Shown: positions 43,627-64,000 of the stretch, one piece after another | How positions within the stretch are numbered: the stretch's first letter is position 1 | How the letters are laid out: each line of letters opens with the position of its first letter | Source: Papaver somniferum | Lineage: Eukaryota > Streptophyta > Magnoliopsida > Ranunculales > Papaveraceae | DNA: 64,000 nucleotides | Direction of reading: 5' to 3' | Assembly (NCBI RefSeq): GCF_003573695.1 | Contig: NC_039362.1 | Coordinates: 13,598,063-13,662,062 of the forward strand | Notes under the pieces: generated by a model | The model's database searches: none | Told to the model about the DNA's origin: nothing | The model's input: only the letters and a program-made list of their open reading frames with translations | Made by a program: the position numbers and the translations under genes

Positions 43627-46600
43627 TCACTCCTCCATAGGGAGTACTTCCACGACTTCCGACGAGAAGTTTTCATAATATGGTTTCAGCCGGTGCCCAT
43701 TCACTTTAAGCTCATTTCCTGTAGCTAAACTACGAATTTCCACTGCACCATGAGAAAACACATTAGTCACAATAAAAGGTCCAATCCAACGTGACCTTAA
43801 TTTACCCGAAAATAATTGCAAGCGAGAATTAAACAAAACCACTTTCTGCCCAATGCAAAATTATTTCTTTGTAATCATATGATCATGAAATGCTTTCGTC
43901 CTTTATTTGTAAATTCGTGAGCTTTCAAATGCATCATTGCGAATCTCCTCTAACTCTTGAAGTTGCAACTTCCTTTACTTTCCAGCACCATCCAACTCCA
44001 TATTGCATTGCTTAATAGCCCAAAACTCCTTATGCTCAATTTCTATGGGTAAGTGACAAGGTTTACCATACACAAGCCTAAAGGGTGACATCCCAATAGG
44101 TGTCTTGTATGCGGTTCTATATGCCCACAAAACATCATTGAGTCGCATGCTCCAATATTTCCTTGTTGGATTCACCGTCTTCTCTAGAATGGATTTCACC
44201 TCTCGGTTGGAAACCTCGGCTTGTCCATTTGTTTGTGGGTGGTAGGGTGTTGCAATCCTATGCGACACATTGTACTTCCTTAACATGTTTTGCAAGAACC
44301 TGTTTTTGAAGTGCGAACCTCCATCGCTAATTATAGCCCTTGGAATACCAAACCTTGCAAATATATTTGCTTGCACAAAATTTAAAACAACTTTAGAATC
44401 ATTAGTTGGGGTGGCCTTAGCTTCCACCCATTTCGAGACATAATCCACAGCAAGCAAGATATAATATTCCCACTAGAATTGACAAAAGGGCCCATAAAAT
44501 CAAGGGTTAATTTGCGTTACCTCCCCTGGAGAAGATCATAATTTGAGTTACCTCCCCTACAGAATAAATATTAGTAAAACCTCCTCTCGTCACTTTTTCC
44601 ATCCAAACCCCGTTAGCTGAGAAGATCATAATTTGAGTTACCTCCCCTGAAGAAGATCATAATTTGAGTTACCTCCCCTAAGAGCATCCAGCTGTACGAA
44701 GCAGCTGACTCAGCTAACGGGATTTGGATGGAAAAAGTGACGAGAGGAGGTTTTACTAATATTTGTTCTGTAGGGGAGGTAACTCAAATTATGATCTTCT
44801 CCAGGGGAGGTAACGCAAATTACCCCTAAAAAATCAATTCCCCATACATCAAAAACCTCAACAAATTGAATAATAGTTTGTGGCATTTGATTTCGAGCAC
44901 CTAGATTGCCTGTTCTTTGGCACCTATCACATGTGATACAAAATGCATGCACATCCTTAAACAAAGTTGGCCAATAGAAACCACATTCTAGTACCTTGAG
45001 AGCGGTTCTCTTGCTCCCAAAGTGTCCTCCACAAGCATATGAGTGGAAAAAAGACAAGATAAAATTAAATTCTGATTCGGGAACGCACCTTCTTATTACT
45101 TGGTCACCACAATGTTTTCATAAGTATGGATCATCCCATATGTATTGGTTTCCTAACTTCTTAAGTTTGTCTCTCTCAGCACGAGACAAGTTCTTCGGAA
45201 TTTATTTAGACACTAAGTAATTAACAATATCAGCGTACCATGGTTCTCCAAAAACAATTGAGAATAGTTGCTCATCCGGGAAGCTTTCACGCAATGGGAT
45301 AGTTTCCTTTTCCACAGCAAGACGGCTCAAGTGATCCGCAACGGTGTTCTCAATTCCTTTCTTGTCTTTGATCTCTATGTCAAACTCTTGCAAGAGTAAA
45401 ATCCATTGTATAAGCATCGGTTTCGCCTCTTTCTTCATTAGCAAGTACCTAAGTGCTGCATGATCAGAAAAGACAACAACTTTTGTACCAATTAGATAAG
45501 AGCGAAACTTTTCCAAAGAAAAAAAATAGCTAATAACTCTTTTTCAGTGGTTGTGTAGTTTTGTTGGGCTTCATTGAGTGTCCTAGAAGCATAATAAATG
45601 GCATGAGGTATCTTCCCCACACGCTTCCCAAGCACCGCACCAACCGCATAATCACTTGCATCACACAGGAGCTCAAAAGGTTTGTTCCAATCCGGTGGTT
45701 TAATGATAGAGGCTGAAATCAAAAGTTCTTTCAAACGATTGAATGCCGCCATACACTTATCATCAAAGTTAAAAACCACATCTTTTTGCAATAAATTTCA
45801 AAGTGGTGATGCTATCTTGGAAAAGTCCTTGATGAATCTACGATAAAAACCTACATGATCAAGAAAAGAGCGTATCTCCCTCACCGTGGTGGGAGGGTTT
45901 AGAGCACGAATAAGGTCTATCTTTGATTTATCGACTTCCAATCCTTTAGACATATTATATGGCCTAAAACTATACCATGAGTTACCATGAAATGACACTT
46001 CTCCCAATTCAGCACAAGGTTTGTTTCAACACATCGTTCAAGGATTAATGATAAATTGTGCAAGCAAAGGTCAAATGAATCACCAAAGACACTAAAGTCA
46101 TCCATAAACACTTTGATTATGTTTTCAACATATTCTGAGAAAATACTTACTATACACCTTTGAAAGGTAGATGGAGCATTGCACAAGCCAAAAGGCATCC
46201 TTCTATAAGCAAAACTACCGAAAGGACAAGTGAAAGTGGTTTTCTCTTGATCCTCCGGCGCTATCACAATTTATTGTAACCTGAATAGCCATCAAGGAAG
46301 CAATAGTAAGAGTGTCCAGCTAAACGTTCAAGCATTTGATCAATAAAAGGTAACGGAAAGTGATCCTTCCTAGTGGTGGCATTCAATTTTCTATAATCAA
46401 TACAAACCCTCCAACCGGTTTGCACACGAGCTGGAACAAGTTTATTCTTATCATTCTCCACCACTGTCACACCTGATTTCTTTGGTACCACTTGTACCGG
46501 TCTCACCCACTTGCTATCGGATATGGGGTAAATAACACCCACATCCAAAAGCTTGAGTATTTCCTTTTTCATAACTTTCATCATGGGGGGGGTTCAAACG

Positions 46601-48085
46601 ACGTTGCGCTTTCCTTGTAGACTTTCCATTGTCTTCCAATCGGATCGTGTGCATACAAACGGCAGGGCTTATACCCTTGATATCGGCAATTGTCCATCCT
46701 ATGACCGTCTTGTACGTCCTTAGCACCCTTAGAAATTTTTGCTCATGTAATTCACTAAACTCATTAGAAACAATCACATGTAAGTCTTCGTTGTCACCCA
46801 AGTACAAGTACTTTAAGTGACTTGGAAGAGGTTTCAATTCTAACTTTGGAGATTTAACAATTGATGGTACAAGTTTTTCATCATTGCAAGGTAAAGAAGC
46901 ATATGAAATATTCTTAAGTGCAGATTTTTCCGGTAATGAGTCAAGAGAACCAATGGTTTCTTTAATCTCATCGCCGTACTCCAAACCATCATCAATGGGT
47001 GTAGTGAGCACGGTTTCCAAAATATCAACACCATTCAACTCAAACATTTGTTGCGCCAATGTATCCATCACATCAATGGAGAAACAAGAGTGGACATCAC
47101 TAGGATATCTCATCGTCTCGAAAATGTTGAAACGTATTATTTCTCCATCAAACTCCATAGTTAGCGTTCCCTTGTTCACATCAATAATGGCTTTCGCCGT
47201 TTTCATGAAGGGACGCTCAAGTAGCAATGGAAGAGATGAGTCTGATGAACCTTCATCCATCTCTAACACACAAAAGTCAGCTGGAAATACTAGTTGATTA
47301 ACCTGCACAAGAACATCCTCAACAATACCCATTGGGTAAACATTAGAGCGATCGGCTAATTGCAATACAATTCCAGCCTTTTTAAGAGGACCAAGATCGA
47401 GTGAGTTATTCATAGATGCAGGCATAACATTAACGGATGCACATAAGTCCAACATATCTTTGTTAAATGTGGTGTTACCAATTGTGACGGGAATGTCAAA
47501 ACTACCGGGATCCTTGCACTTAAGTGGAAGTTTGTGTTGTAAGATTTCCGAAGCATTCTCCCCCACACTTAGCACTTCATTACCTTTGAGCCTTTGCTTG
47601 TTGGTACACAAGTCCTTCAACATCTTTGCATACTTTGGAACTTGCTTGATTGCATCTATAAGTGATATGTTCACATGGATCTTCTTGAGAACGTCTAAAA
47701 TCTCCTTTTCTAGTTCCGCCTTCTTGGAATTTGCAAACCTACGAGGAAAAGGTATAGGAGGAACATAAGTAGAAACCGGAATTTTAGAGTTAGAAATAGG
47801 TACCTCAGAAGTTTGGGGAGAATCCTCATTCTTCTCCTCCAAAACAGGTTCCTTTGGTGTTTCCACCTTGCCCGAATCAGTAACTTCGGGTTGCACAAGT
47901 TGTGTACCACTTCTCAACGTAATTGCATTAACACCCTCTTTTGGGTTGATAGGTTGAGAAGGGAGTTTCCCACCATTTTGTTCCTTCAACTGGTTCAACT
48001 CAATAGCCATAGAACCAACTTGAGTTTGCAACTCTTTAACCGTGTTCTCCGTTCTTTGCATAAAAGATTTCAGCAACTCTTCCAT
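43627..48085 (-). pseudogene. Athila copy A pol (protease, RT, RNase H, integrase), frameshifted
   Basis: Minus strand. The first frame (48085-46514) carries a linker region typical of Athila and the protease, whose active-site motif reads DLCAS where DLGAS is usual. Reverse transcriptase follows (WRVCIDYRKLNATT, FLDGYSGY, MPFGLCNAPSTFQ and an intact FMDD box near 46110), with frame changes near 46550, 46265 and 46000. Then RNase H (LLCDASDYAVGAVLG, then TVADHLSRL) and integrase: zinc-binding CX2C (CITCDRCQ), a catalytic core with D, ISDGG and a glutamate in VSNREVKS (44457-43975), and a C-terminal domain (43842-43627). A 326-bp MITE splits the integrase between GIDF and the first catalytic region. 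Confidence 0.88.
44504..44829. mobile_element. Fold-back MITE inside the Athila integrase
   Basis: A 326-bp element whose two arms are inverted copies of each other over about 110 bp each (left gggttaatttgcgttacctc, right ggtaacgcaaattacccc). It is flanked by perfect 8-bp direct repeats aaaatcaa (44496-44503 and 44830-44837). Internal words tttgagttacctcccct are repeated several times. It interrupts the integrase right after codons for GIDF. The 8-bp duplication suggests hAT. Left and right ends are uneven by about four bases. Confidence 0.85.
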
Positions 48086-49089
48086 ACTTGACCCCTGATT
48101 TGAGGTTGTTGTTGTTGTTGTTGTGGGAATTGTTGTTGCTGAAATTGTTGTTGTTGTGGTTGAAATCCACTCGGACGGTTGAAAGTAGGTTGTTGAGCCG
48201 CTCCTTGCTTGTTGGCATAACTAAAATTGGAGTGATCTCTCCATCCCGGATTGTAAGTGTTGGAGTAGGGATCATACCGTCTTTGTTGATTTGGAAAGAC
48301 AGCATTAGCTTGTTCATTGGCGTCTTCATACCTTTGAAGAGAACTTGGTATCACCGCGGCTGCAACTTGTTGCATCATTGCTGTCATGTTACCCATTTGT
48401 TGACGAAGTTCTTCGACCTCGCTCACTTCATTTACTCTCCTGAGAAGCACATCCGAACCATGATTCAAGAATTGTTGGGAGTTCGCTGCCATGTTTTCAA
48501 TCGACTCTCTAGCTTGTGCCACCGTTTTGTTCACTAGTGCACCACCACCCGCAGCGTCAAGAAGATTCCTATCACTTGTTTGGAGTCCTTCATAGAAGTA
48601 TTGGATTATCATTGCATCACTAAATTGGTGGTGAGGACAGCTTGCCACCAATCTCTTGTATCGTTCCCAACATTCATATAAATATTCTCCCACATTTTGC
48701 TTCATTCCGCAAATCTCCTTGCGAATTTGAGTAGCCTTTGATGCTGGAAAATATCTCTCTAAAAAGAGTTTCTTCAACCCATTCCATGTTGTGACACTCC
48801 CGGAAGGCAAATAATACAACCAATCCTTAGCAATATCCGGCAAAGAGAATCGGAAAACTTTCAACATTGCACCATCCGCATCAGTATTCGCTGGAAGCAT
48901 GGCCGTGACAATGGTGTGGAAGTCCATAAGATGCTTGTTTGGGTCTTCATTCACCATGCCATAGAACTTTGGTAATTCTCTAAGCAACCCCTGCTTGATC
49001 TCGAAAATAGAGTTTGTTTGAACACACCATTATTGTGTATCCAACTTGTGAGAAGCCAAGTCCTTGAGTGTACGATTTGCATCACCCAT
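48070..49089 (-). pseudogene. Athila copy A gag
   Basis: Starts MGDANRTLKDLA at 49089 (further upstream in-frame sequence adds an acidic Glu-rich stretch). It has one in-frame stop (TAA at 49030-49032), then a long open stretch (48987-48070) with the retrotransposon gag domain (LLRELPKFYG..DPNKHLMDFH, W..YLPSGSVTTWNGLKKLFLERYFP) and a Gln-rich tail. A one-base shift in the CAA repeats near 48100 separates it from the protease frame, which is normally continuous with gag in this family. Confidence 0.85.
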
Positions 49090-49398
49090 TTCTTCTTCTT
49101 CTTCTTCTTCAAAAGGTGGTTCTTGTTCAACCGGAACCTCTTGTTCTTCTTCTAGTTGTAACTCTTTTTCCACTTCTAACTCTTGTTCTTCCGTCGTGTC
49201 TTGACTTGGTTGGAGTATTGTGCCTCTTCGAGTAGCTATCTCGCACCTTGGATAGTTCCAATCTTTAGAAGCCAGGGAATAGGTACCTGAAAAACAATTC
49301 TCACAAACAAGTAAGAAAAACAAAACAAGAAACAAAAAGCAAATATGAAAGCAGAAATGATGATAAGAAACTAAAAACTTAATAACTAGACGTATGCC

Positions 49399-49416
49399 TC
49401 CCCGGCAGCGGCGCCA
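49399..49416 (-). other. Athila copy A primer-binding site
   Basis: Minus strand TGGCGCCGCTGCCGGGGA, four bases inside the LTR end. It has the form of the tRNA-Asp-type site known for Athila elements. Confidence 0.85.
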
Positions 49417-49420
49417 AATT

Positions 49421-52400
49421 TGATGTTTGTCGTATGCGTCAAAAATAAATTCACTTTCCTAAAGTATATGATAAGAAAGAGTTCGTTTCCACAGAGAGGC
49501 GATTGTAGCTATTAAGTATTCAATTTCCTAAGTAACCAATTGGGGGGATTTCTGATTTTATAAAGCAATATGAATTAAATCAAAAGCAAAGTAAATAGTA
49601 TAATGTAATCAATGAGAGAAAGATATCGGTCAGGGAATTCATCTTCTATCTTAAACATGTGCTTGCATACATGATTAGAATTACAATTTAATCTCTTATC
49701 AAAAGCCTAGAGTATCAAGAGAGCAAGATATTCCATTAATTTCCTAAGTTCATCAACACACACATTAGAGCTGCGTATGTGAATTCCACCTAAAGAATAA
49801 CCTAACGCCTTGCGCTAATCAAGTTCAATTCCCAGGAGCATTAAGTTTTGGGAATAGGCTAATCAATGCAATTTTCATACATTGCGCATGACAATTCGGT
49901 GAATGGTCAAACTCTACATATGATTACAAGAGTGTATCAATACAAACCGTAATCATATCATGCTCTTGTATTCGGGATTATCGTTTGATGAAAAACCCTA
50001 AAATAGCTATGGATAAGGATGCAAGTTCAATTAATTGACCACTTAACTAACCAAACATTTAAGTCCTATCACAATACATCAATCATGTGATTATTAAAAA
50101 CAATAGAGATTTGAACGATAATCAAGAGAGAAAACTAATGCATTAATCAAGCACAAGTTGTAGATATAAGACTACATCCTTAACCAATAATATAAGATTT
50201 AGCTACTCATAGCTATGGAGTTCATCATAATCAATAATCAAATAAAGAAGATGAAAAATAAATACGAAAGCAAACCCTAGTTGCGGCTATCTCCAAAGCT
50301 CCAAGTAGAATACGTGATACCAAACGTTGTAGAAGTCTTCTCTTTTATAACTCCTCTTGTTCCAAAATTAGGTCCAAGTCTTCAAAGTCCATTAGATAAA
50401 AATCCACCAAACCCATATGTGAGAAAAACCCATGTAGAAATTTTCCCAAAAATATGACGCCAGAAAACTGGGGTCCACCGCCGGAAGTTGGCCGGAAAAG
50501 TGGTCGGAGAAGTATCTCAGGTGACCGACAAAGTCCACCCGGATACCGGTCAAACGGGTCATGTCATCGAGTCAACTCAGTCAAAGTGACTGAGTCAAAC
50601 CGAGTCAATGAGTCAGATGGCTAATCAGATGAGTCAGGTCTGGCTCAGTCTGATTGATTCACTTACAGGCCATTTGCACTGGCCAGATTTAGTGTTGCAC
50701 CATCATTGTGCTTCACAGGTACCTATACAGCCATGACGGTTGCTCTCTGCTCCAGCTGCACTGCACATACATCTACCAGTTGCAACTTGCATTTCATTAA
50801 CAACAAAACACTTCATTGCATTCATTGCATCACCTCCATCACTTCACTTCAGCTTGTATTGCATTCCAACTCCATCAGAGCCTATTGCCATTTCAGCTCA
50901 TTTCCAACTTAAGAGACTCGACAAACTCCAGTCCAAAGCAGCAACAACACAACCCACAATTACCATCACCTGTAGCACCACCTCCAGCTTCAAGCACCAC
51001 ACATCACCTGTAACTTCATCTCAGTCGTACCTCCATCTCGGAAACACCACAGATTCAGCTCTCAATTGCAAGCAACACCAATACACACTGCAATACCACC
51101 AACAACTGCAACTGATTTATTCTCCCTGCACCCTAACATACATATAGTGACTGCAGTTTCAGTTCAACCCAGCTGCAGCTGCAACTGCCTCATGACCACA
51201 ACCATTTGCAAGTCTCCAATTCTGCCATTACAAACTTGAGTATGCATCATCCCTGACTAGTTCCTTGAACTCCATCATCTGTAATCATCACTCCTATTGC
51301 ATTCATCTCATCTGCATATCTTCTCCAGACCACCTTCTCAAGCCAGCTTCTGATGAGCTCAATAACACCCTTCAATCCACAACACCTCATCTCCATCTCA
51401 GTTTCAAGCTTCACCCACTGCTCATGCTTTGCAACAGTGGCAACAACCACCAGATTGTACTTGGATCCATTCACTCCAGCTGCACCTCATTCTCTGCCAC
51501 CTGCAATTTGTACTTGGATCCATTCACTCCAGCACTAGCCCATTAGGTCCCTGGCAGTATCAGCAACTCCTGCTCAGTACCAACTTAACCTGCAGAGCTA
51601 TAGCACCACCTGAATTGCAGCTCATTCTAACACCAAAGAACTCCATTCTTCCATTGCAGCAGCAACGCAGCTCTTCACCATTCTAGCAGGTTTGTCTCTG
51701 CTTAACTTCAGCACATTTATCTTCTATTACTTCCGGCATTCACAACCAAACCAACACCAATACCCATTAGTTACATCTTAACTGCAATCAAGCAGCAACA
51801 ATCAACACTCATTCATCTGCACAACCAAACCCATGAGCAATTTGAGTCCCTGCAAATCTTCTTAGCTCCTAAAACTGCAACCCATCAATCTCAAAGCAAC
51901 AACATCATCTTTACTGTCTTCTCAGCTCAAATGAGCTTCATAATCCCCATGAATCTTTCAGCATAGCAGCATATATCTCCATTGTCTTGACCTAAATTAC
52001 CAGCAGCAAAGGTAATTTCTCCAGTAACTTCACTGCCTCATCTGAACAGCACAACCACCTCTTCCTTGGTCAGCTCGAACCCTCATTTCGTTACCAACAT
52101 CAAATTCACGTCAAACCCATCTCTAATCTCTAATTTCTTTGTTAATTTTCATCAACAGTTCACCCCATCTCTCAAATCAATAGCCACAACCCTAAATTTC
52201 CATCTCAATGATTCAGAATAACTTCAACCCCCTAACTTCCTTCATCTCCAACTTCAGATTCGACTCAAACCCGAAGATCCAATTCTTCTTGTTCCTTGTA
52301 TTTCTCAAATCTCCCATCTTCTTCATCAGTTCATCTTCTCTGAGATCTCCTCCATCACTGACGTCAACAACAACCAAATATTCTGTGAACAGCCGTCGTC

Positions 52401-53033
52401 GATCTCATCTTCCACAGCTCGAATTTCTCGATCTCTCTGAAATTCGGCGCAGCCATTTTCTCTTGGTTTCAGGTAGAGTGGGAAATAATGAGAAGATAAT
52501 CTCTTCTCTGAATTTTTGGGTAAGAGAAGCTGACATGATACAACCACTCAGATGAATTGGCTAAGGGGGTACCCAGATGACTCTAGGCACCCTAAGTGTT
52601 GATACGTGCCACCAAAGAATGACAACTCCTTTTGCTCCATTGTGCTTCCAATAGCATCTGCACGTGGGAAATTTCGCTTTTGCTCTTCTTTGAACTCTTC
52701 CACCAACAACAATCGTCTATTATTTCTCAAAATCACTTCTTTTCTTCAGTGTCTCTTCATCACTAAAGCTGCCGTACTTTTCAGACAAAATTCGCATCAC
52801 TAAATCCGACATGCTTTTCAGATAGAGATGAAGAAATAAAAACAAATAATGAGAAATAATTTCGCCTCAAACACCATTTGCACCTTTTAAGCGACGTTTC
52901 TTCTTCTTTTGTTCCAAACGACTCCAAAGTACCTAAAACTCAAAAGCGAACATAAGATACAAAATTTACAAGAAAACTTATCAAAGAAAGCATAAACAAT
53001 AAATAAATATTAAGGTGTTTTAGACACCTATCA
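49421..53033 (-). repeat. Athila copy A, 5' LTR (3.6 kb)
   Basis: TG at 49421 and ca at 53033 (minus strand start TGATAGGTGTCTAAAACACC). It is adjacent to the primer site and matched over 2.7 kb by the partial 3' LTR. The bulk of it (50690-52050) is pyrimidine- and CA-rich sequence with no believable coding capacity. Confidence 0.9.
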
Positions 53034-53397
53034 TTGTGCATATTGAAAACATAACTGCGAAGCATATGTGAACTCTAGATAGACATAGTATTAAGGAATA
53101 CAATACGAGGTTTATTGCTTAACCATTAAACTTTGTAGATAAGACATCGCCACAATCATTTGAATGCTATTGTAATTATGTATGGGTATGAGGTGAGGAT
53201 TTCATCCTAGGGAACAATGTTTTACATGTGTTCTAAGGAAGTAAGTTCATAAAATTGTTGTGTTCTTGGTAGCACGATTCACAAAGGCCTGACTTATGTA
53301 TTGGTATAACTTTTAGGTTGTTGAGTATTTATTACTAATTTATGAAATTTAGCGGAGAATGATTCATGAAACTGAGTAATAAAGTGAGTAGTTTTTT

Positions 53398-53612
53398 TAT
53401 TACCAATTCATAGGATCAGTCGTGGATTCGACCATGAACTCGGAGTAATAAAATTAGTGATGATATTACCATTTCATGAGACCAGCCGTGGGTTCAACCA
53501 TGAAATCAGAGTAATATCTATTACCATTTCATGAGACCAGCCGTGGGTTCGATCATGAAATCTGAGTAATACATTTATCTATTACCATTTCGATCATGAA
53601 ATAGGAGTAGTG
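53398..53612. repeat. Short tandem array (about 65-70 bp unit)
   Basis: Three to four imperfect copies of a unit containing attaccatttcatgagaccag and gtgggttcgaccatgaaatc; the last copy is shortened. It lies in the non-coding segment upstream of the acidic-protein ORF. Confidence 0.85.
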
Positions 53613-53669
53613 AGATAAGATAGATTATCTTCTAGGAATTCAATGGTGAATGTCACAGCTGAATCTAAT

Positions 53670-53952
53670 CTCTTGCGTATAGTCAGTTAAACAACGAGTG
53701 TTTCCGAAGTCCTGAAGACGTTATTGCTCTCAATCTTACGGAGAACCGCCTGGGTCTACACACGATCTCTCTACATAGTCAGGGAACAGTGAGTGTCACT
53801 GACGTCCTGAAGGCATTATTACTCTCAATCTTACGGAGAACCTCCCAATCGTTCTTCTATGTAGAGGGGGTCTCTCTCATGTAGTCAGGGAATAATGAGT
53901 ATCACCGACGTCCTGAAGGCGTTATTGCTCTCAATCTACGGAGAACCGTCCA
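53670..53952. repeat. Tandem array of three units of about 100 bp
   Basis: Three imperfect copies sharing tagtcagggaa..gtcctgaaggc.ttattgctctcaatctacggagaacc. They lie directly after the shorter array, in the same non-coding segment. Confidence 0.85.
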
Positions 53953-54456
53953 ATTATGTTATTCTACATAAAGGGAATGGTGAAACGCCAGGGATCGAAT
54001 TGCTCAGCTGGTGGGGCTTTTCGAAAACATATTCATCATGGCTTCGTAAAATATGAATCTTTGCATGCCTGAAAGCCGTGTCAAAAACATGCCTCATGAT
54101 TTTACGATTTTGCCCTTTGTTGAAAATCCACCATCTACATTAAGTTCCTGCTTAGTGAGGGACAGTCATGTTCCGCAGTAAGCATGAAATGGTGATTTTC
54201 AGTCGACGAGATCAGTGGTTGAACTCGGTCTACAAAGGTATTATCAGAATCCTCGATTTACTCCAATGATGAGATGTACGAGCAAATGTTTGAGTGAGGA
54301 CCCTGATGGTATGATAGAGTATGATTCCGTGAGCATGGGGAGCTGAAGCATCGCTGGTTTGGTTGGTCAAAAGTCCAGTTTTGTCGATTTAGAATTCATG
54401 GGCCCGAGCCCAGAAAAGGAAACCCGTGTTTTATTAGGTTTTAGAAATAAAATTAA

Positions 54457-54464
54457 TATAAAAG
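54457..54464 (+). promoter_or_regulatory. TATA box for the acidic-protein ORF
   Basis: tataaaag, followed about 80 bp later by an ATG-bearing, GC-rich first exon (54545) ending in a perfect cag/gtaagt donor. Spacing and orientation suit a plus-strand promoter. Confidence 0.55.
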
Positions 54465-54544
54465 GGAAGTAACCTTAATAATTTTTTTTGTGTTTTTGAT
54501 TGACTGACCGCTCTTCTCTTCATCACCTCACGAGCATCAGCAGC

Positions 54545-55985
54545 ATGAGAACTCGCCGGATCCAGCGTCGCCGCCCGTCCGGCCATAATCCGGCCGACGC
54601 CGACAGGTAAGTCTGCTCGTGTTTTTCTTTGTTGTATGTTTCATAATTCATGAGTTGTTCAAAAAAAAAAAAATACCAGGGTTGCAAGCATGCGTAGGAT
54701 TTATGAAGAATTTGTTTCAGAAAACGTATATATGCTCGTTTGTTCGTTAGTTTAAGAAACGAGCAAAGGTCCCTAATATGAATGAGACACATAAAATTTT
54801 GAATATATATGGTCTTGTTGCAGTAGAAAAAGTTTTGTTTATTAGATTTCATGAAAACCCAAGTTTGTTTTCGAAACAATGAACTTTACAAATACTTTTA
54901 GAAACGTAAGTTTGTTCGTAAAATTGATGAATAATAATCCTTAGGATTAAAGGAATTTTGAAAAGACCCGGAGTTCATGATGAAAATTTGTTTATGAACT
55001 TTCAAAATTTTATTTAGAATATATGGACCTTTGTAAAAATAGAAAAGACCCTCGTTTCGTAGACGAATGCTCGGTTGAGCAAAAAGAACTTTTTTTTTAT
55101 TTACGTGAGTTATTAACTCACAATTTTTTTTAAAAAAGGTACGTGACTTATTCACGTTTTATTAAATATAAATCAAGTTTTGATTTATGGAAAATTGTTG
55201 AAAGCAAACAATTTATGAGTTGATGAATTTGTAGTTCATGAAAAGCCAATGTTTGACTTTAAATGATAAGTTTTATGCTCGACTTTGCAGGTTTGAAAGA
55301 ACGAGCAAGTTTGGGGTTTTACGCTGTTATCACTAAGTTCGTGAAATCGTAAATAGGTAAGAACTGAGGATTACCATTCTGTAGATGCGGATGCGAGTAT
55401 ATTTGTGACTCCGTGTTTCTATTTTCAGAAAATGTGACCTCTAGCAGAAGCAGCGATTATTTTTCCATCTCTTCTGAAGAGGATTCCAAGCCTTCTGCGG
55501 TCAAAGCTCGATCTAAGACGAATCATGTTGCAGGAATGAAGCGTAATGCACCCATTAATGACCGGAGAGTCACTTATGATGAGCTCATGAAGAGAAAAGC
55601 TGAGGATGACGAGTTGGATGATCGTCGACGGAGAAGAGCCCGAGTCCAGCGTAGATTGCTAGCAGTTGAAGAAAAGCTTCACTTCCGAGCTGATGTTGTA
55701 CCCTCAGATTATGATTCTTCGGAAGATGGGCCCATGTGGATGCCACAGGATCGCAAGATTATGCCAGACCGACGTAGTAGAGAGATCGAGAAACTGGTCA
55801 AAGCTGACCTTGAATCTGAGTGTAAAGAAGAAGAGTACTGGGACTCTAGCGATCCTGATATCCATCCCGACTTCGTCAATGTCCCTGACAGTAACTTCGA
55901 AGAAGAAGAAGAAAATGAGGATTCTTCGAAAGATGATGGTGACGAATCTGGTGATTTTGATAAATCTGATGCATCCTATGATTAG
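54545..55985 (+). CDS. Acidic protein of unknown function (putative antisense ORF of a Tat element)
   Basis: An open stretch from 55429 to 55985 follows a good acceptor (attttcag). The first in-frame Met is at about 55538 (MKRNAPINDRRVTYDELMKR). Upstream, a GC-rich exon (54545-54606) ends in a cag/gtaagt donor, and a small exon-like piece (55292-55356) lies between; I could not join these in frame, so they may be 5' UTR or decayed. The protein has a basic, Arg-rich coiled segment (DDRRRRRARVQRRLLAVEEK) and a long Asp/Glu/Ser tail (SSDPDIHPDF.., EEEEENEDSS). I recognise no family. Position and orientation opposite to the Tat-type integrase at 63371 suggest an accessory antisense ORF; a host gene is the alternative. 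Confidence 0.45.
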
Positions 55986-56383
55986 TCTTGTTCACGAGTC
56001 TTCATGAGATTATTTACTTTCCATTGCAATAAATATTTTCTAGTTATTTGAGTAGTTTGGCTGTAGAGATGTTGCATTAGAAATTATTTTGAACAATGAT
56101 CCCTTATCGTATCTTTTGCCAAATTTCCTTCACGCTCCCAGTTGAACAAGATGAACCAATGTCCATGTAGGCAGTGATGATCCACAAAATGCGATCATAT
56201 AAGCTGGCTAGCGAGACACGTGACCTGCAATCATCAACCAGTATTCGCAATGTTGACTATATCTGAACTGTCAGTGGTATTGTTACGCTTCTCTCATATC
56301 TCCGATTTAGGATTTCAGTAGAAACCGCAACCGACTTGGATAAGTATTTATATCTTAACTTTCAGCACTTAGGGTTTGATACT

Positions 56384-56392
56384 TATATAAAT
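56384..56392 (+). promoter_or_regulatory. TATA box for the coiled-coil ORF
   Basis: tatataaat, 59 bp before the ATG at 56451, with a short CT-rich leader between. Confidence 0.5.
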
Positions 56393-57163
56393 CTTCTTCT
56401 ACTGTGCATTATCATAAGAAATTTTGATCATAATCATACCTCTTATCAACATGTCTAGTAGTAGCGCTTCTTCTCGAAATGGATATTTTATGAAGTATGA
56501 GCCTAGGTTGCCATCCCGGTGAGTATAGCGTGCTTTTCATTATTGTTCATGTAACCGGAAATCCTGATCAAGGAAAGTGATCCATTGCAGGGTAATCAGG
56601 GAATGAATCTCGTCTGAGACCTAAGCGGACTGTCAGGGATCCTACACGTTATAGACCTGCTCGCGAAGCTGGGACTGAGACGCCTGTAAGTCTTCAACTG
56701 AAAATTTCTCTTGATCGAGCATTGTCCAGATTTTCTGAACGTTTTATTATTGCAGGTTGATGTTCATGTTGTTGTCGAAGCCAAGAAGAAAAAGAATGGA
56801 AAGTCCGTGGTTGTAGCCAATAGCGATGGCGTCATTCATACCGAGAACTCGGAGAACTCTGTAGATGCCGATCCTAGGGTTTCTGCTCGTGAATACCTAA
56901 CAGCTGGATTTCCGTTCGATACTCCCATGATCGACATTTTCCCAGAAAATCAACTGGTTGGTGGTTTCATCATCCCCAAATGTTATGCATCTCTTTACAC
57001 CAAAATTTGGAGAAAGTACGGGCATATTGCTACTACCTAAGTGTGGAGAGGTTTTCCGCAGACTCTGTTAACCACAGTTGTTGAGTTATTGCCTGTCATT
57101 GATGACATGAACAATAAAAAGCTTCGAGATTTCAAGAATGAAGAGTTGCACAGATGAGACGAT

Positions 57164-58697
57164 TGATTATAGATTTTTCGTGGTTGTAGTAATGAGGTTC
57201 AAACTCTCGGACTTGTGAAGGATACTTTTTTTTAGACTTAATAAATAATTATACAAAATATTAACAATTTGGGCGAGAGGTAACCAAGACACAAGATTCC
57301 ACTACTACGCAAAATTATGATAAATATTTCAAAACTCTATTCAATTCTTAAGTCCTCTTTTATCTTTAATTCACTATCAATCATACAAATTCTCAAACAT
57401 TATTTGTAAACCTTAAGCATAGATTATCAAGAGATTAAACCAAGCATAACCTATCAAACTGAATAACAAATAATTAAGACAATCATTCAAACAATTTAAA
57501 ACTCCGCAAAAGCAGCGATTAGGTGAATTATATAATTAAATGAAATAGTTACCCATTTATGTTGCGTGAATAGCTTCCTCCATTGCCTTGGTTACGAGGG
57601 AATTAGCTCATCATAGTAAAAATGCTCTCTAAGAATTTCATTGATGCTCAAAAGTGTTTTACAATGAAGAGAAAGATAAGAAAATAGTATTAAACAAGAT
57701 TCTGCGACCCAGAGAAGGCGTCCAAAATAAACGACAAAGAACAGATGCTATTGTTACTGAATCCCTAAGACGCACACCTACGACCCACGTCTGTGAGTCT
57801 CTTTCACTGTTGGTAAACGACTGCTTCTGCGGGTCCGTTCTTCGTGTTCTTCATCTTCATCAATGGCAGCAGCAGCAGCAGAGAGAAATCATGGTTCTCG
57901 ATTCTGCAGCGTTCCTTCTCTCCTCCCAACTCTCGACCCCCTCTCAGTGATTCCCCAAGACCTTATATATACTCGCAATCATCCAAAATCTCATCAATCA
58001 ATCAAATATATTCGGTTTTACTCTCGATGCAGATACGGGGAATAATCACACCACAAGAGTATTTTCTCGAATTTAAACCTCTTACCATATCTGTTTCGGT
58101 TAAACAGGATGGTATAAACTAATTGGAGCGAGAAAAATGTCCCAAATCTTCTCGAGTTTAATGGAGAATATTCTCCCATGCAATACGCCCCTGTTTTCAA
58201 CTCGTGGGATCAAACAGGTTTTCCAGACAAATTCGATCAGATTCGATACCTACAATATCTTCCTTAGGCTAAATCACAACATCCTACCAAATTTCATCCA
58301 TTGAATCTCCCTAGAACACCATCAAAAATCAATCGAAAATTCTGCCAGAGAGTAAAAACATTTCCCGCCAAAACAAATTTTGAATTTTGGAAGAAGGTCG
58401 CCCCTTATCCTGTGGTCGCCCCTTATCCAAAGTGTTGGGGTGCGAATAGTAATTTGGGTGGAAATAGTAATTTTTATGGATTCCTCCGACACATTTCTGG
58501 GACGCTTCCGGTGCATTTCTGGGGTGCCTACGGTGCATTTCTCCGTGGTGTAAAACACTACTTTTTGAGCCTATTTCGCCGCAAGGGCTAATTTCTCTAA
58601 AATTTCCTACAAAGAAATAAAATAACGAAATTAGTACAAAATCGAGTGCCAACAATATAGTATTGAGATCAAATTAGACACAAAAATGTGTCTATCA
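57164..58697 (-). repeat. Athila copy B, 3' LTR (1534 bp)
   Basis: Minus-strand start TGATAGACACATTTTTGTG at 58697, end at the target duplication (57163/57164). It carries a TATA box on the minus strand (tatatataag, 57963-57972) that the 5' LTR lacks. Confidence 0.85.
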
Positions 58698-58716
58698 CAC
58701 CCCCAAACTTATTATT
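58698..58716 (-). other. Athila copy B polypurine tract
   Basis: Minus strand AATAATAAGTTTGGGGGTG directly abutting the LTR start TGATAGACAC, the expected plus-strand primer position for reverse transcription. Confidence 0.85.
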
Positions 58717-59979
58717 TGCTAGTCCTCGAGCAAATTTATTCTAGAGAAGTGACCGAGTTAATCTCGGATGGGTTTATCAGAGGTGTACCCACAAAAACCA
58801 ATACTCCATACCCTAGCTATATACGCAGAACCTTGGAAAGCACTAAAGAACCTCCTTGGTTGGCATACAATTATTGACTCTAAGAGGAAGAACCCTGATG
58901 CGAAATTCCAATTGCTGTACACGAGTTTGCACTCAAGCATACTAAAATTCATATAAGTGACAGAGCTCTACTAAGATAGTTTCACGATGGACATCATACT
59001 CGGAGTCAGACTAATCACATGAAAAGATTAAGAAGATGGAAAAAGAAAAATGTAGATGGTTGAAAAGTGAACGGTGTTTCCCATATCTGTCTGAAGGCCT
59101 CTGCCAAGATGAACCTAACCTAAATGACTGAGATACCGGTCTGACTAATATTAACACACTGGCATATACAAGGGAACCAGTGGTCAATAACTTAAATCTA
59201 GATCAACAAACTGGCAAATACAAGGGAACCAGCAGTTGACTACACATAACAATAACCATTTTTTTTTTAACTTAACGGCATGAATAGATCTTTTTGCTCC
59301 AAGCGCATGCTTCTTGTCAGCAGATTACACGATAGTTCCCACGGGTCCTGCATTCCACGCTTGCTTAGGCGACGGAAACAGGGAGAACACACGCATATTG
59401 CTATCCAAGTGTTAATACTTATTCCGATTGGTCTAACTGGTCCGGTCTTTTTTTTTTTTGAAAAAGGTAACTCAGTCACTCTATTTCACCCTAGCAAAGG
59501 TAACAACTTGAATCGTGTGCCCCACCAAATCACTTGAAACAAAAGAAAACTAAAAATAGAAAGTGAAAAGGACTCGACAAGATATGGCGAAACTATCATG
59601 TTATTTCTAACACCTGAGCTCTGTGCTTTTATGAATAGACTCTATAGATGTTTCCATCTAGTCAGATTGGTTTCTCAACTCCTAAAACAAAAATGTTTCC
59701 ATCCACTTAGATTGGTTAGTGCTATCCTTAATAGGCGTAAATTTCTAGGCTCTGGAGTTTATTTATTATGCAACTAAAAAGTTTCTCCCATACCCCCAAA
59801 CTTAAATCTAACATTGTCCTCAATGTTCTAAAGATGAAACTAAAAGCATGAACAAGGAGAAACTGTTACCATTTGAAGCGAAAGAGTTAAGGAAAGATAT
59901 TACCGTGTTGCATGAGATTGGGTTACCTCCCAAGAAGTGCTAAGTTTAAAGTCTTCAGCCAGACGTAGGAAAGGTTTAG

Positions 59980-61344
59980 TCAACTCGAACCGTATAACAG
60001 TAGCCGGAATAACTGTGGGTCTTTAAAACCAAAAAGAGCTGACAAAAGGAAACTACAGTGAACCAACGAAATGAACAACACTAGCATGCCCTTACCTAGT
60101 TTCCTGATAACTATCGCTAATTGTGGTTCAGGTTCAGGTTCTATGAAAGGGTCTAAATAGAATATTTTCATTGGTTGCGTTTCTTCATAGGTTGGACCCA
60201 AATTATTAGGTCCTAGAGTCTGGAAAAACTCAAATAAGAACTTGGAATCACAAAGTAATAACCTAAATAATTGCGGATCCTCTAAGTCAATCAGATATGA
60301 CTTACAAAATTGACCACAGTGAGAATAGTGGTCATTCTTAAGCAAATGTATCGATTCTAATTTCCTAAGGCATTTAGGTTTAGTCTCACAACTTAATATT
60401 CGACACATTTGGAATATAAACGTTCCCACAGTTGGAAGAAAACTATTTGGTGGGAAAACAAAGTCAATCTGGGGATCATAGCCTGGGCAAACCACATCAA
60501 CCAGAGGATGGGTTTCTAACGACTGAACTTCTTCCTGGACATCATTAGGTTCGGGAAAACGAGTATGAAGGTAATCTTGTAAAATGGTTGAGGCACATAT
60601 GTCAAGTCCCAAGTGAGGGACCTTTCTAAGAGTTAAAGGTAAGGCACTAGGAAGGTGATAATCACCCCCAAACTTAGAGTTTTCAGTGTCTCTAGCTAGA
60701 CTAGTCACAATCTCCCTAATTTCTGGATCATTAGATTCTTGAAAATGGTCAATTGATTCTTCTAAGTTATTATCAGGTGGTGCATCTTTACTCATATTTA
60801 AAATCTCTACGAGTTCATGTTCTTCTTCTAAGACTAATGTTTCTAAATCGCTAGACTCTAAAATAATATTCTCAGAATAAACTCGTTCCTCTAGACCATT
60901 ATCGGCTTCGTAATCCTCGTCTAAAACTGTGGTATCTCTAGTCAAATCCTCGTCCTTTTGAATAGGTGAATAATTATTAAAATTATTTGGATTTGAACTA
61001 GAAATAACATTATCATTATAAGGCTCAATTGGAGAAACAAATTCCTGATTACTCTGCCTACATATTTCAGATTCTTCTTCATCACTATCCTCATCATCAT
61101 GATACAATTTTTGAAATTCAAGAATTCTCAATCTTTGTTCCAAACTACATGGTCTATGTTTATAATATTTCTCATAGATCGTTAGAGGTGATTCCTCAAT
61201 AAAAGTTGGAGTATCCATATATCGCTGCCCACGCATATATTCACCAAGAGTCATTTCCGAAGACGTCTCTTGATAACGAGAATTTCTAGACATATATTCT
61301 CGCAACGCCATCGCAGGTGGCGTCTCCTCAAAAGGATTCATCAC
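59980..61344 (-). CDS. 454-aa protein of unknown function in a non-autonomous Athila-type element
   Basis: One uninterrupted minus-strand frame beginning MMNPFEETPPAMALREYMS. It contains no zinc knuckle, protease, RT or integrase motif and I recognise no family. Seen: two related N-terminal words (ALREYMS and TLGEYMR), a strongly acidic middle (DDEDSDEEESE, LEEEHELVEIL), a cysteine-containing central block (ILSCETKPKCLRKLE, HYSHCGQFCKSYL), and near the C-terminus a hydrophobic stretch of about 20 residues starting GMLVLFISLVHCSF (about 419-440) that could be a membrane helix. The word DPQLFRLLL occurs twice, before and after that stretch, from a small internal duplication. A position downstream of the leader, with a C-terminal hydrophobic segment, recalls env-like or extra ORFs of Athila relatives, but that is inference. 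Confidence 0.65.
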   Translation of the reverse strand: MMNPFEETPPAMALREYMSRNSRYQETSSEMTLGEYMRGQRYMDTPTFIEESPLTIYEKYYKHRPCSLEQRLRILEFQKLYHDDEDSDEEESEICRQSNQEFVSPIEPYNDNVISSSNPNNFNNYSPIQKDEDLTRDTTVLDEDYEADNGLEERVYSENIILESSDLETLVLEEEHELVEILNMSKDAPPDNNLEESIDHFQESNDPEIREIVTSLARDTENSKFGGDYHLPSALPLTLRKVPHLGLDICASTILQDYLHTRFPEPNDVQEEVQSLETHPLVDVVCPGYDPQIDFVFPPNSFLPTVGTFIFQMCRILSCETKPKCLRKLESIHLLKNDHYSHCGQFCKSYLIDLEDPQLFRLLLCDSKFLFEFFQTLGPNNLGPTYEETQPMKIFYLDPFIEPEPEPQLAIVIRKLGKGMLVLFISLVHCSFLLSALFGFKDPQLFRLLLYGSS

Positions 61345-62407
61345 CGAAGAAATATAAACTACAGAGGGATTCTATACAATCACAAACAAGGCCGACTCGA
61401 ATCCACCAAAGCAAACCTAAAGATTTCTAGCAAACAAAAAGCATGATGGCTCCACTTAGATTGTTTCTAGACCAGCTTCTATCTTTCGAAAGGGAATTCG
61501 TTGCAATTTGAGCAAACCCCTCTGGAATCAATCCGAGTCAAAGTAAGTTGAATTGAGGCGAGGGAAGCTCAGTGGAGCTTTGATACCCAAGGCCTCACCG
61601 CTATCACAAGGCGGCGCAGTCACGCATTCAACTCACAGAAACCATCATGAACTTTGGAGTGTGCTTAAAGAGCAACCAATATTTTTCGAACGAGTTTCCT
61701 ATTAAGCTCGTTACCCTATAGGTCTCGTTCTATTCCAAATTTTAAGCTTGGGTTCGCGTTAGGTTTCGTTTTCCTAAGGCGTGTAAGAAGGGAGCGGTGA
61801 TGAAATCCGAACCCTTATCTAGTATTGGCCAGGCCTTGCCCTTTACTAGGAATTTAAAAACTGTCCAAATTCGTCCTCAATCAATGAATCACCTTAAGGA
61901 ATACAGTAACTCGCTTACAGGAGATTCGCGAGTGTTTCGATGGACTTACCTCCCGTACCGGACGGGGGATGAACAGTTGTCGTCGATTCGGGCCACGACT
62001 CCTATGCCGTGTGCGAACCCGAGGGGCCGAGACGATATAGTAATCGTCGTCCTTCCCTGCACACAGTTTATATAATAATTTTTATTTTTATTTTTTAATA
62101 ATAATACCCTTCCGTAGGGTTAAAAAAAAATAAAGTCCAATTGTTTAAAGTCCAAAGTCCAAAATAAAAAAAAAAATTTACAGTTTTCCTCACACACTCA
62201 AAAAAATTAAAAATTAAAAATTAAATCCTAAAATTGTCCTTTTTTTTTTCTTCTCTTTTCGCTTTTCGCTTTAAGCTTTTTCCTCTCCAAGTCCTTAGTT
62301 TTCACTTTGAACATGCAAAATAAAGACCAAAAGAAACGTAAAAAGGAACAAACAATTCTAAAAAAAAATAAATAATAAACCTAAAAAAAATTCTACCTAA
62401 GCACAAA
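61345..62407 (-). other. Athila copy B leader region
   Basis: Untranslated leader between the primer site and the ORF, about 1.06 kb. It is GC-richer at 61550-62060 and strongly A/T-homopolymeric at 62070-62400. No coding capacity that I can support on the element's strand. Confidence 0.6.
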
Positions 62408-62425
62408 TCCGCGTCGGCGGCGCCA
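62408..62425 (-). other. Athila copy B primer-binding site
   Basis: Minus strand TGGCGCCGCCGACGCGGA, three bases inside the LTR end, matching copy A's site at 14 of 18 positions including the whole TGGCGCCGC. Confidence 0.8.
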
Positions 62426-62428
62426 AAA

Positions 62429-62916
62429 TGATTAAAAATTTTCTGTGTGGTCATTTTTCTCGCTCCAATTAGTTTATACCATCCTGTTTAACCGAAACAG
62501 ATATGGTAAGAGGTTTAAATTCGAGAAATTACTCTTATGGTGTGATTATTCCCCGTATCTGCATGGAGAGTAAAAACATTTCCCGCCAAAACAAATTTTG
62601 AATTTTGGAAGAAGGTCGCCCCTTATCCAGTGGTCCCCCCTTATCCAAAGTGTTGGGGTGCGAATAGTAATTTGGGTGGAAATAGTAATTTTTTCTGGAT
62701 TCCTCCGGCACATTTCTGGGACGCTTCCGGTGCATTTCTGGGGTGCCTACGGTGCATTTCTCCGGGGTGTAAAACACTACTTTTTGAGCCTATTTCGCCG
62801 CAAGGGCTTATTTCTCTAAAATTTCCTACAAAGAAATAAAATAACGAAATTAGTACAAAATCGAGTGCCAACAATATAGTATTGAGATCAAATTAGACAC
62901 AAAAATGTGTCTATCA
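62429..62916 (-). repeat. Athila copy B, rearranged 5' LTR (488 bp)
   Basis: Both LTR ends are kept, but most of the R/U5-side sequence is missing. The segment 62452-62564 is the reverse complement of 58027-58139 in the 3' LTR. From 62565 it again runs collinear with 58347-58697. Confidence 0.85.
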
Positions 62917-63370
62917 ACGATATGATCTCGAACTGTGAGGTTTTGCGATTCAACATAAGCTGGCTTCGTTGTCGACTTGAAATCATTAAGGTTGATAGGG
63001 CGACTGCTGCTGCAAATATGATTTCTGCTACTTCTGCCATTATAGAAGAGGAGAAGGAACTTGCTCTGGAATCAGCAAGAGTTGAGAAAGTTGTCCAAGA
63101 TTTGAGAGTGAAGAATGAAAACTTTCAGAAGATGCTTGAAATAGCCTTCAGTAAGGATTATCTGTTGATGGATGGTTTGCTCTGAGTGAGAGTTTGAAAG
63201 AAGATTTTTTTTTATATGTAGGTTTGAGATTTTGTTTTGAATAAAGTAGATAATTGAAATATGCTTGTGAGATTCATAGAATATTTTGAATTTTGAATGA
63301 ATGAGCATACTGCATACTCTTTTGGAGAAAATAGAAATTACATTGAGAAATTTAATACTTTGATGATCGT

Positions 63371-63916
63371 TCAAGCATAATACGCCTTGAGCCACTTTCC
63401 ATTGATGATGTTTCCTTCGACTCCTCCATTAACAACTAAGATTTTGTAATATCCGCTAGATACTGCCTTGATAACTACATAAGGCCCTTCCCATTTAGGA
63501 GAGAATTTGGGAGCGGACATGTCTTGCTGGATATGTCTTGTTGTTTTCAAAACCAAATCTCCTACTTGAAATGTTCGAGGTCTTACCATTTTGTTGTATG
63601 CCTTGGAAATCCTCTGTTTGTAGGTTTCCACATATTTTTCTACCTTGGTCCTTCTCGATTCAAGCATATATGACTCAGCAATCCTCGAATTATATACTTC
63701 GGCTTCATTCCATTGCACTCCACTGGCTGCTGCGATTCTTGCAGAGGAAATCTTGATCTCAGCTGGGAGGAAAGCATTAGCGCCATAGACAAGAGAATAC
63801 GGTAAAGTCCCAATTGAACTCCTTGGTGCGGTACGGTAGGCCCATAAAGCCATGGGTAATTCCTCATGCCACGTTCGTGGATTGTCATGAAATGTTCGAC
63901 CGAGAATCCGGATCAA
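63371..63916 (-). pseudogene. Tat/Ogre-type Ty3/gypsy integrase C-terminal fragment
   Basis: Minus strand, open for about 180 codons. It has the end of the catalytic core (WHEELPMALWAYRTAPRSSI..PYSLVYGANAFLPAEI) and the C-terminal domain (VGDLVLKTTRH, FSPKWEGPYVV) ending NGKWLKAYYA, typical of Tat-lineage pol ends. The upstream part is cut at 63919 by a SIRE LTR. The polyprotein stop faces the end of the plus-strand coiled-coil ORF 185 bp away. Confidence 0.88.
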
Positions 63917-63919
63917 GGT

Positions 63920-64000
63920 TGAAAAAGCGGGGGTCTAACAGCACCACCCAATATTTCGCTTAGAAATCTGTATGAACAAACTTCAATATAGTTTTTATGA
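63920..64000 (-). repeat. End of a SIRE-type copia LTR (runs out of the window)
   Basis: tgaaaaagcgggggtctaac and the following 60 bases match the end of the LTR at 2606 onward with modest divergence. It begins directly inside the gypsy integrase, without a primer site on the integrase side. It is therefore the outer end of a 3' LTR, or a solo LTR, in minus orientation. The pentamer aaggt (63915-63919) would be the target duplication. Confidence 0.75.

What the first reader, a model, noticed from the sequence alone, without database searches (positions are those of the whole stretch)
53034..63370. Two promoter-bearing, spliced plus-strand ORFs lie tail to tail with a minus-strand Tat-type integrase
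Tat/Ogre-lineage elements are known to carry extra ORFs between pol and the 3' LTR, sometimes antisense. Here two plus-strand units, each with its own TATA box and good splice sites (acidic protein 54545-55985; coiled-coil protein 56451-63185), end 185 bp from the pol stop on the other strand. The proteins match no family I recognise. If they belong to the element, this is a retrotransposon with a two-gene antisense accessory module.
Basis: inference. Interest (0 to 1): 0.75.

Follow-up and report, generated by a model that had tools for sequence, protein, structure and literature searches.

The report
Retrotransposon with two antisense accessory genes
A repeated jumping element of the opium poppy carries, on the strand opposite to its own enzymes, two extra protein genes kept by selection, one of them related to a class of plant genes that includes a virus-resistance gene; the copy in this window is a broken relic.

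Summary
The two plus-strand ORFs are real and belong to the element. The genome is opium poppy. Of 29 other copies of the acidic ORF, 26 have a piece of the second ORF downstream on the same strand; the integrase follows tail to tail in 5 of 5 loci that reach that far. Two sister elements have ~3.4-kb LTRs and perfect 5-bp target duplications, with both ORFs between pol and the 3' LTR. Both proteins are under purifying selection (median dN/dS 0.25 and 0.16 in frame, 0.85-1.17 out of frame). The second protein does match a family: it is PEARLI-4-like and homologous to the second domain of plant MATH-PEARLI-4 proteins (a class that includes the virus-restriction gene RTM3), so a host domain was probably captured in antisense. 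Antisense genes in Tat/Retand elements are known, and two extra ORFs in poppy Retand have been mentioned in print. I found the domain identity and host link in no paper searched. Expression and function are inferred.

The parts
53316..54139 (-). remnant of the element's 3' LTR; inner edge at 54139 (…CCATCTACA on +), left part missing
   Evidence: Matches both LTRs of sister elements; 94.2% to its own 5' LTR in L051 over 724 bp
54457..54464 (+). TATA-like box of the acidic unit (conservation not tested)
   Evidence: sequence
54545..54606 (+). possible exon 1 of the acidic unit, weakly conserved
55368..55985 (+). main frame of antisense gene 1, acidic protein
   Evidence: dN/dS 0.25
56383..56390 (+). 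TATA-like box of antisense gene 2
   Evidence: a like box in one subgroup of copies, altered in others
56451..56518 (+). exon 1 of antisense gene 2
   Evidence: ATG kept in 25 and donor in 22 of 28 aligned copies
56591..56685 (+). exon 2 of antisense gene 2 (frame broken in this copy)
   Evidence: acceptor kept in 24 and donor in 23 of 28
56756..57163 (+). exon 3 of gene 2, left part (PEARLI-4-like domain), with in-frame stops in this copy
62922..63185 (+). exon 3 of gene 2, right part (coiled-coil end) and stop
63371..63920 (-). integrase C-terminus of the element; match to sister copies breaks at 63920 (an insertion that runs to L051:1344)

Best explanation
This is a decayed copy of a multi-copy Tat-type (probably Retand-lineage, apparently GAG-less) LTR retrotransposon of opium poppy. 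Between pol and the 3' LTR it carries a two-gene module on the strand opposite to pol. Gene 1 encodes an acidic protein with an internal basic cluster; gene 2 is a three-exon gene for a PEARLI-4-like protein with a helical, probably coiled-coil end. Gene 2 shares its domain with host MATH-PEARLI-4 proteins and most likely came from such a gene. Shown: order, strand, LTR bounds, target duplications, constraint on both proteins, homology of gene 2 to host genes. Inferred: each gene is transcribed from its own internal promoter (as reported for maize Grande), and the proteins act in trans for the element's spread, gene 1 probably in the nucleus or on chromatin, gene 2 by binding itself or host MATH-PEARLI-4 proteins. 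The long intron seen in the window is a later nested LTR insertion.
For: Same order in 26 of 29 other copies, integrase tail to tail in 5 of 5 loci that reach it; two sister elements with LTR pairs and target duplications GTTGT and CTGTA; the window's own LTR pair 94.2%; dN/dS 0.25 and 0.16 in frame against 0.85-1.17 out of frame, pol 0.10; conserved ATG and splice signals; AP-RT-RNase H-second RNase H-integrase order in L041; three relatives of gene 2 over the Pfam PEARLI-4 cut-off; MATH protein P0045 E 1.2e-17; profile comparison with host proteins 99.7%; tree split 100/100.
Against: No transcript or protein evidence. NCBI joins both units into one model in six cases. L013, L016 and L017 show no unit-2 piece in the stretch held, and L015 only exon 1. 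The second subfamily has no recognisable acidic ORF in 12 of 12 loci. The window's own subfamily scores below the PEARLI-4 cut-off. The tree does not root the direction of transfer. Lineage within Tat untested.
Confidence: 0.85

Rival explanations
1. One fused accessory gene: acidic exons are spliced onto the PEARLI-4-like exons to give one protein, and the second ATG and TATA-like box are incidental.
For: Six NCBI models join them (P0031, P0032, P0034-P0037).
Against: Most acidic models end at the same stop; one stand-alone unit-2 model exists with the exons found here (P0044); the second ATG is kept in 25 of 28 copies; the joined models differ in where they join; a second subfamily has unit 2 without a recognisable acidic ORF.
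Confidence: 0.2
2. The antisense RNA matters, not the proteins: plus-strand transcripts pair with element RNA and feed silencing or dampen copy number.
For: Proposed in general for antisense ORFs (PMC7264820, part 2 read).
Against: Substitutions respect the reading frames: dN/dS 0.25 and 0.16 in frame, about 1 in shifted frames. Both roles could coexist.
Confidence: 0.06
3. Two host genes that happen to lie beside a Tat copy.
For: Unit 2 has host relatives; the units look like genes.
Against: The units are dispersed over contigs C1-C11 in the same order, next to the same integrase where covered, and inside LTR- and TSD-bounded units.
Confidence: 0.01
4. The shared PEARLI-4-like domain moved the other way: a retrotransposon gene was taken into host MATH proteins, or both come from an older source.
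For: The tree is unrooted and the branch between the groups is long.
Against: MATH-PEARLI-4 proteins are reported in Arabidopsis, rice and Brassica (PMC10218331 and PMC3664471, passages), so the host class is old, whereas named element-borne relatives were found only in Papaver (limited sensitivity).
Confidence: 0.15

Closest known systems
Retand-lineage elements with antisense TRP28 ORFs (Vicient 2025, PMC11963269; text parts 1-3 of 5 read)
   Same: Antisense ORFs between pol and 3' LTR; pol-3'LTR region about 3.5-3.7 kb here, inside the published 2.9-6.6 kb.
   Different: No TRP28 match found (no positive control); LTR about 3.4 kb against 315-1,194 bp there; gene 2 has host relatives; poppy is not named in that paper's main text.
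Papaver Retand sublineages (PMC12582370; passages only)
   Same: Same species; the paper reports GAG-less Group II sublineages with a short 5'LTR-to-protease distance, and two additional ORFs in Retand.
   Different: The paper calls its two ORFs transmembrane; the proteins here have no membrane-like segment. Whether they are the same ORFs could not be seen (supplement not available).
Maize Grande gene23 (described in PMC7264820, parts 1-2 of 3 read; the original paper is not held)
   Same: Antisense accessory gene before the 3' LTR with its own promoter; nuclear protein.
   Different: One gene, and that review says no clear similarity to other proteins is described; here there are two genes and a host-related domain.
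Plant MATH-PEARLI-4 proteins, the class of RTM3 (PMC3664471, PMC10218331, PMC3377653; passages)
   Same: Homologous domain with the motif LYxxIWxxYGHI followed by a conserved WLR block.
   Different: No MATH domain in the element's protein; encoded in antisense inside a retrotransposon.

Membership tests
Tat clade of Ty3/gypsy | second (additional) RNase H between RT-RNase H and integrase | tested here: met
   L041 pol: RVT_1, RT_RNaseH, RVT_3 (E 2e-19) in order, integrase downstream. That this marks Tat: abstract start of PMC10508981. Tested on one sister copy, not on the window copy.
Retand lineage | RT phylogeny | not testable with these tools
   no reference RT set on hand
Retand lineage | long pol-3'LTR region with antisense ORFs | tested here: met
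   about 3.7 kb in L042, about 3.5 kb in the window without the nested element; antisense ORFs
Retand lineage | antisense TRP28 (PF04195) domain (61 of 63 published clusters) | tested here: inconclusive
   no Pfam match in the ORFs; genome search 0 matches of 41 candidates, but no control genome rang either
GAG-less Papaver Retand (Group II) | no GAG domain, short 5'LTR-to-protease distance | tested here: inconclusive
   about 0.6 kb between LTR edge and protease frame in L042, no gag match in two stretches scanned
PEARLI-4 (PF05278) | score over the curated cut-off of 29.9 bits | tested here: inconclusive
   over it: P0033 32.6, P0039 32.1, P0041 47.0; below it: P0040 22.6, P0038 16.3, P0029 14.3; no match: L041 unit 2. 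150 scored places in the genome are over it
MATH-PEARLI-4 proteins | N-terminal MATH domain | tested here: not met
   no MATH in unit-2 relatives other than P0045; 0 of 12 element-borne loci match the MATH part. Only the second domain is shared

The most novel reading that the evidence does not exclude
The element captured the second domain of a host MATH-PEARLI-4 (RTM3-class) gene and uses it, from an antisense gene, as a decoy or partner that binds host MATH-coiled-coil complexes, so lifting a host restriction on the element or hijacking a transport route: a retrotransposon-encoded counter-defence protein in plants, paired with an acidic chromatin-acting protein.
Probability: 0.12. Interest if true: 0.85.

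Novelty: new variant of a known kind. Interest (0 to 1): 0.57.

Why it matters
Antisense genes of Tat/Retand elements have no known function, and two papers argue that they have no relatives outside mobile elements, which speaks against capture from the host (PMC7264820, PMC11963269). Here one has clear host relatives, from a class that includes a virus-movement restriction gene whose protein is reported to self-associate (PMC3377653, passages). That gives a concrete binding partner to test. It also shows an antisense module in which no TRP28 was found, with both proteins held by selection.

Tried and rejected
Considered and dropped: host genes beside a transposon; a real 5.8-kb intron; membrane (env-like) proteins (highest 19-residue hydropathy 0.06 in the acidic-only proteins measured and 1.45 in unit-2 proteins). 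Loci L001-L008 from the first integrase search are more distant integrases (7 of 8 match the window's integrase end at 42-48% protein identity). The structure prediction of the unit-2 domain was of middling confidence (mean pLDDT 66), and the fold search gave no useful match (best E 2.5). The solved-structure sequence search gave two matches, E 0.071 and 0.87, both taken as chance. I first read L043 as a tandem neighbour element; two searches showed that it is the rest of a 3.4-kb LTR. The last acceptor of unit 2 was not counted (pattern missed); it was read by eye in L041 and the window. Papers not held: 10.1007/s10709-012-9654-9 and 10.1007/s11103-013-0019-2. Searches for PEARLI with retrotransposon, for MATH-domain capture with antisense, and for PEARLI with Papaver gave one paper (listing only, on another subject), none and none.

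Full report
What the window is. The genome search places the window at G000:C5:13598063-13662062 in a 2.7-Gb assembly. All 28 homologues of the acidic ORF returned by the protein search are named Papaver somniferum, so this is taken as opium poppy.

The observation. The plus strand holds an acidic ORF at 55368-55985 and a second unit that starts at ATG 56451 and stops at 63183-63185. The minus strand holds an integrase C-terminus that ends at 63371 with NGKWLKAYYA. The distance of 185 bp is right. The second unit's long gap is not an intron. The stretch 57164-62916 is an LTR element on the minus strand: LTR parts at 58348-58697 and 62566-62916 are 98% identical, and it is flanked by ACGAT at 57159-57163 and 62917-62921. 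In sister copies the two sides are one uninterrupted sequence. A relative of the nested element lies beside another copy (L045, 89.8% over 2953 bp).

The module belongs to the element. A DNA search with the acidic ORF scored 40 of 576 candidate places, the window's own included, on contigs C1-C11 and some smaller ones. Of 34 loci examined, one is the window itself and four are short versions of L039-L042, leaving 29 other copies. In 26 of 29 at least one piece of unit 2 lies downstream on the same strand; in 25 of 29 it is a piece of the main exon or the C-terminus; 23 of 29 have both of these, at most 62 bp apart. L013, L016 and L017 show none in the stretch held, and L015 only exon 1. Where the locus reaches far enough (L024 in part, L039-L042) the integrase follows, tail to tail, in 5 of 5.

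LTRs. The element's LTR is about 3.4 kb (3,436 bp in the 5' LTR of the L042 element), starting TGTGGATG and ending CCATCTACA on the window's plus strand. The copy around L042 has GTTGT on both sides; the copy around L022 has CTGTA on both sides. LTR identities are 94.1-95.4% (L042 element, two pieces) and 94.7% (L022 element, the part held), K2P 0.044-0.047. The window copy keeps 824 bp of its 3' LTR (53316-54139). Its 5' LTR, about 8 kb right of the window in L051, is 94.2% identical to it over 724 bp, K2P 0.060. With a recalled rate of 1.3e-8 per site and year this is about 2 million years. The match of the window's pol to sister copies breaks at 63920 and resumes at L051:1345, so an insertion cuts it. 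The window copy is therefore a relic: LTR truncated, pol interrupted, gene 2 interrupted and with in-frame stops. Sister copies with uninterrupted frames exist: a rough motif count found an acidic frame of 150 aa or more in 19 of 30 loci and the unit-2 main exon open over 200 aa or more in 5 of 30, the window included and some loci not reaching the end of unit 2.

Both ORFs are coding. Nei-Gojobori counts on copies aligned to one reference copy gave median dN/dS of 0.25 for the acidic ORF (30 copies, 343 pairs), 0.16 for unit 2 (22 copies, 177 pairs) and 0.10 for pol (4 copies, 6 pairs). The shifted frames gave 0.85 and 1.15, 1.02 and 1.17, and 1.41 and 1.59. Copies with under 70% of the reference, and pairs with dS of 0.1 or less or fewer than 80 codons, were dropped; stop codons and gapped codons were skipped; pairs share ancestry and are not independent. 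In 28 aligned copies (the window and the reference copy included) the ATG of unit 2 is kept in 25, donor 1 in 22, acceptor 1 in 24, donor 2 in 23. A TATA-like TTATATAAA lies upstream of that ATG in one subgroup and is altered in others.

One gene or two. NCBI models of poppy copies include mostly acidic-only proteins among the 28 found (P0001 holds the domain twice, P0018 joins a unit-2-like stretch in front of it), one stand-alone unit-2 protein with the exons found here (P0044) and six joined models (P0031, P0032, P0034-P0037). The joined models use different joins, so I favour two genes; only transcripts can decide.

What gene 2 is. The profile of unit 2 (A2) found 20 proteins: 12 named P. 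somniferum, one P. bracteatum, 7 from unnamed contigs. Three relatives pass the Pfam PEARLI-4 cut-off of 29.9 bits (P0033 32.6, P0039 32.1, P0041 47.0); the window's own subfamily does not. The P. bracteatum protein P0045 has a MATH domain followed by the unit-2 domain (E 1.2e-17; MATH_2 E 3.3e-21). P0045 against the poppy genome gave 132 matches (129 of 11834 candidates scored). Many lie in clusters on C9, C11, C2 and C32071, mostly at 43-91% identity; lower ones at 31-39% are dispersed. I took 12 of the higher ones and call them host genes because of clustering and MATH; their surroundings were not read. Of six of these scanned, four carry the last ~33 residues of a MATH domain in the same frame, one of them over the curated cut-off and three below it; two, whose stretches start later, show none. 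In a tree of 10 element-borne and 13 host-type rows (12 loci and P0045) each group is one side of a branch with 100/100 support. Of ten PEARLI-4 loci tried for that tree only one, with a stop-free plain reading, entered. Profile-profile comparison gives probability 99.7, E 2.6e-26 over 121 columns. PEARLI-4 rings over its cut-off at 150 scored of 1213 candidate places in the genome. Of the 12 best, 10 have the integrase C-terminus on the opposite strand tail to tail, and in none was the acidic ORF or MATH found. So a second subfamily carries the PEARLI-4-like antisense gene without a recognisable acidic partner in the stretch held.

What gene 1 is. It is an acidic protein (pI 4.4-4.7 in the five measured) with a basic cluster, and had no Pfam match. 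NCBI names such as histone chaperone-like are automatic. A nuclear or chromatin role is inference.

How it most likely works. The two genes are read from their own promoters on the strand opposite to pol, as reported for Grande gene23 (PMC7264820, parts 1-2 of 3 read). The proteins act in trans for the element. Constraint on the proteins is shown; transcription, location and partners are inferred. RTM3, a MATH-coiled-coil protein, is reported to self-associate and to bind RTM1, with its MATH and coiled-coil parts both involved in resistance (PMC3377653, passages). A MATH-less PEARLI-4-like protein could bind or block such complexes; that is a hypothesis without direct evidence.

What is known. 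Antisense ORFs between pol and the 3' LTR are typical of Retand elements, 97% of clusters with TRP28 (PMC11963269, parts 1-3 of 5 read). The Papaver Retand study mentions two additional ORFs that it calls transmembrane (PMC12582370, passages; supplementary figure not seen), so part of the observation may already be in print. I found no paper that links PEARLI-4 to a retrotransposon ORF in searches. TRP28 gave no match in this genome, but no control rang. Membership in Tat rests on the second RNase H in one sister copy; Retand membership by RT tree could not be tested.

Noticed in passing
window 39612-53033: Another minus-strand gypsy-type element with 2.7-kb LTRs (39612-42311 and 50299-52999, 95% identical), a gag match at 48070-49029 and an integrase match at 43975-44472; it abuts the Tat remnant.
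   Followed up: partly
window 57164-62916: In the nested element one LTR carries a segment inverted relative to the other (58016-58142 against 62575-62449, 96.9%), and a 463-aa minus-strand frame (59980-61371) has no Pfam match.
   Followed up: partly
window 42618-43239 and 59013-59606: The nested element and the left element share a 631-bp stretch at 76.5%, so they may be related families.
   Followed up: no
L053-L064: A second poppy subfamily with a PEARLI-4-like antisense ORF tail to tail with the integrase in 10 of 12 loci, without a recognisable acidic ORF.
   Followed up: partly
P0018 (NCBI model LOC113324412): A model that joins a unit-2-like stretch in front of the acidic protein, the reverse of the order seen in the elements.
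   Followed up: no
window 53398-53620 and 53690-53951: The LTR remnant holds two sets of diverged direct repeats, 53 and 61 nt long, three copies each.
   Followed up: no
L041 476-2185: This sister copy has an extra AT-rich, repeat-bearing stretch inside the upstream part of the acidic unit.
   Followed up: no
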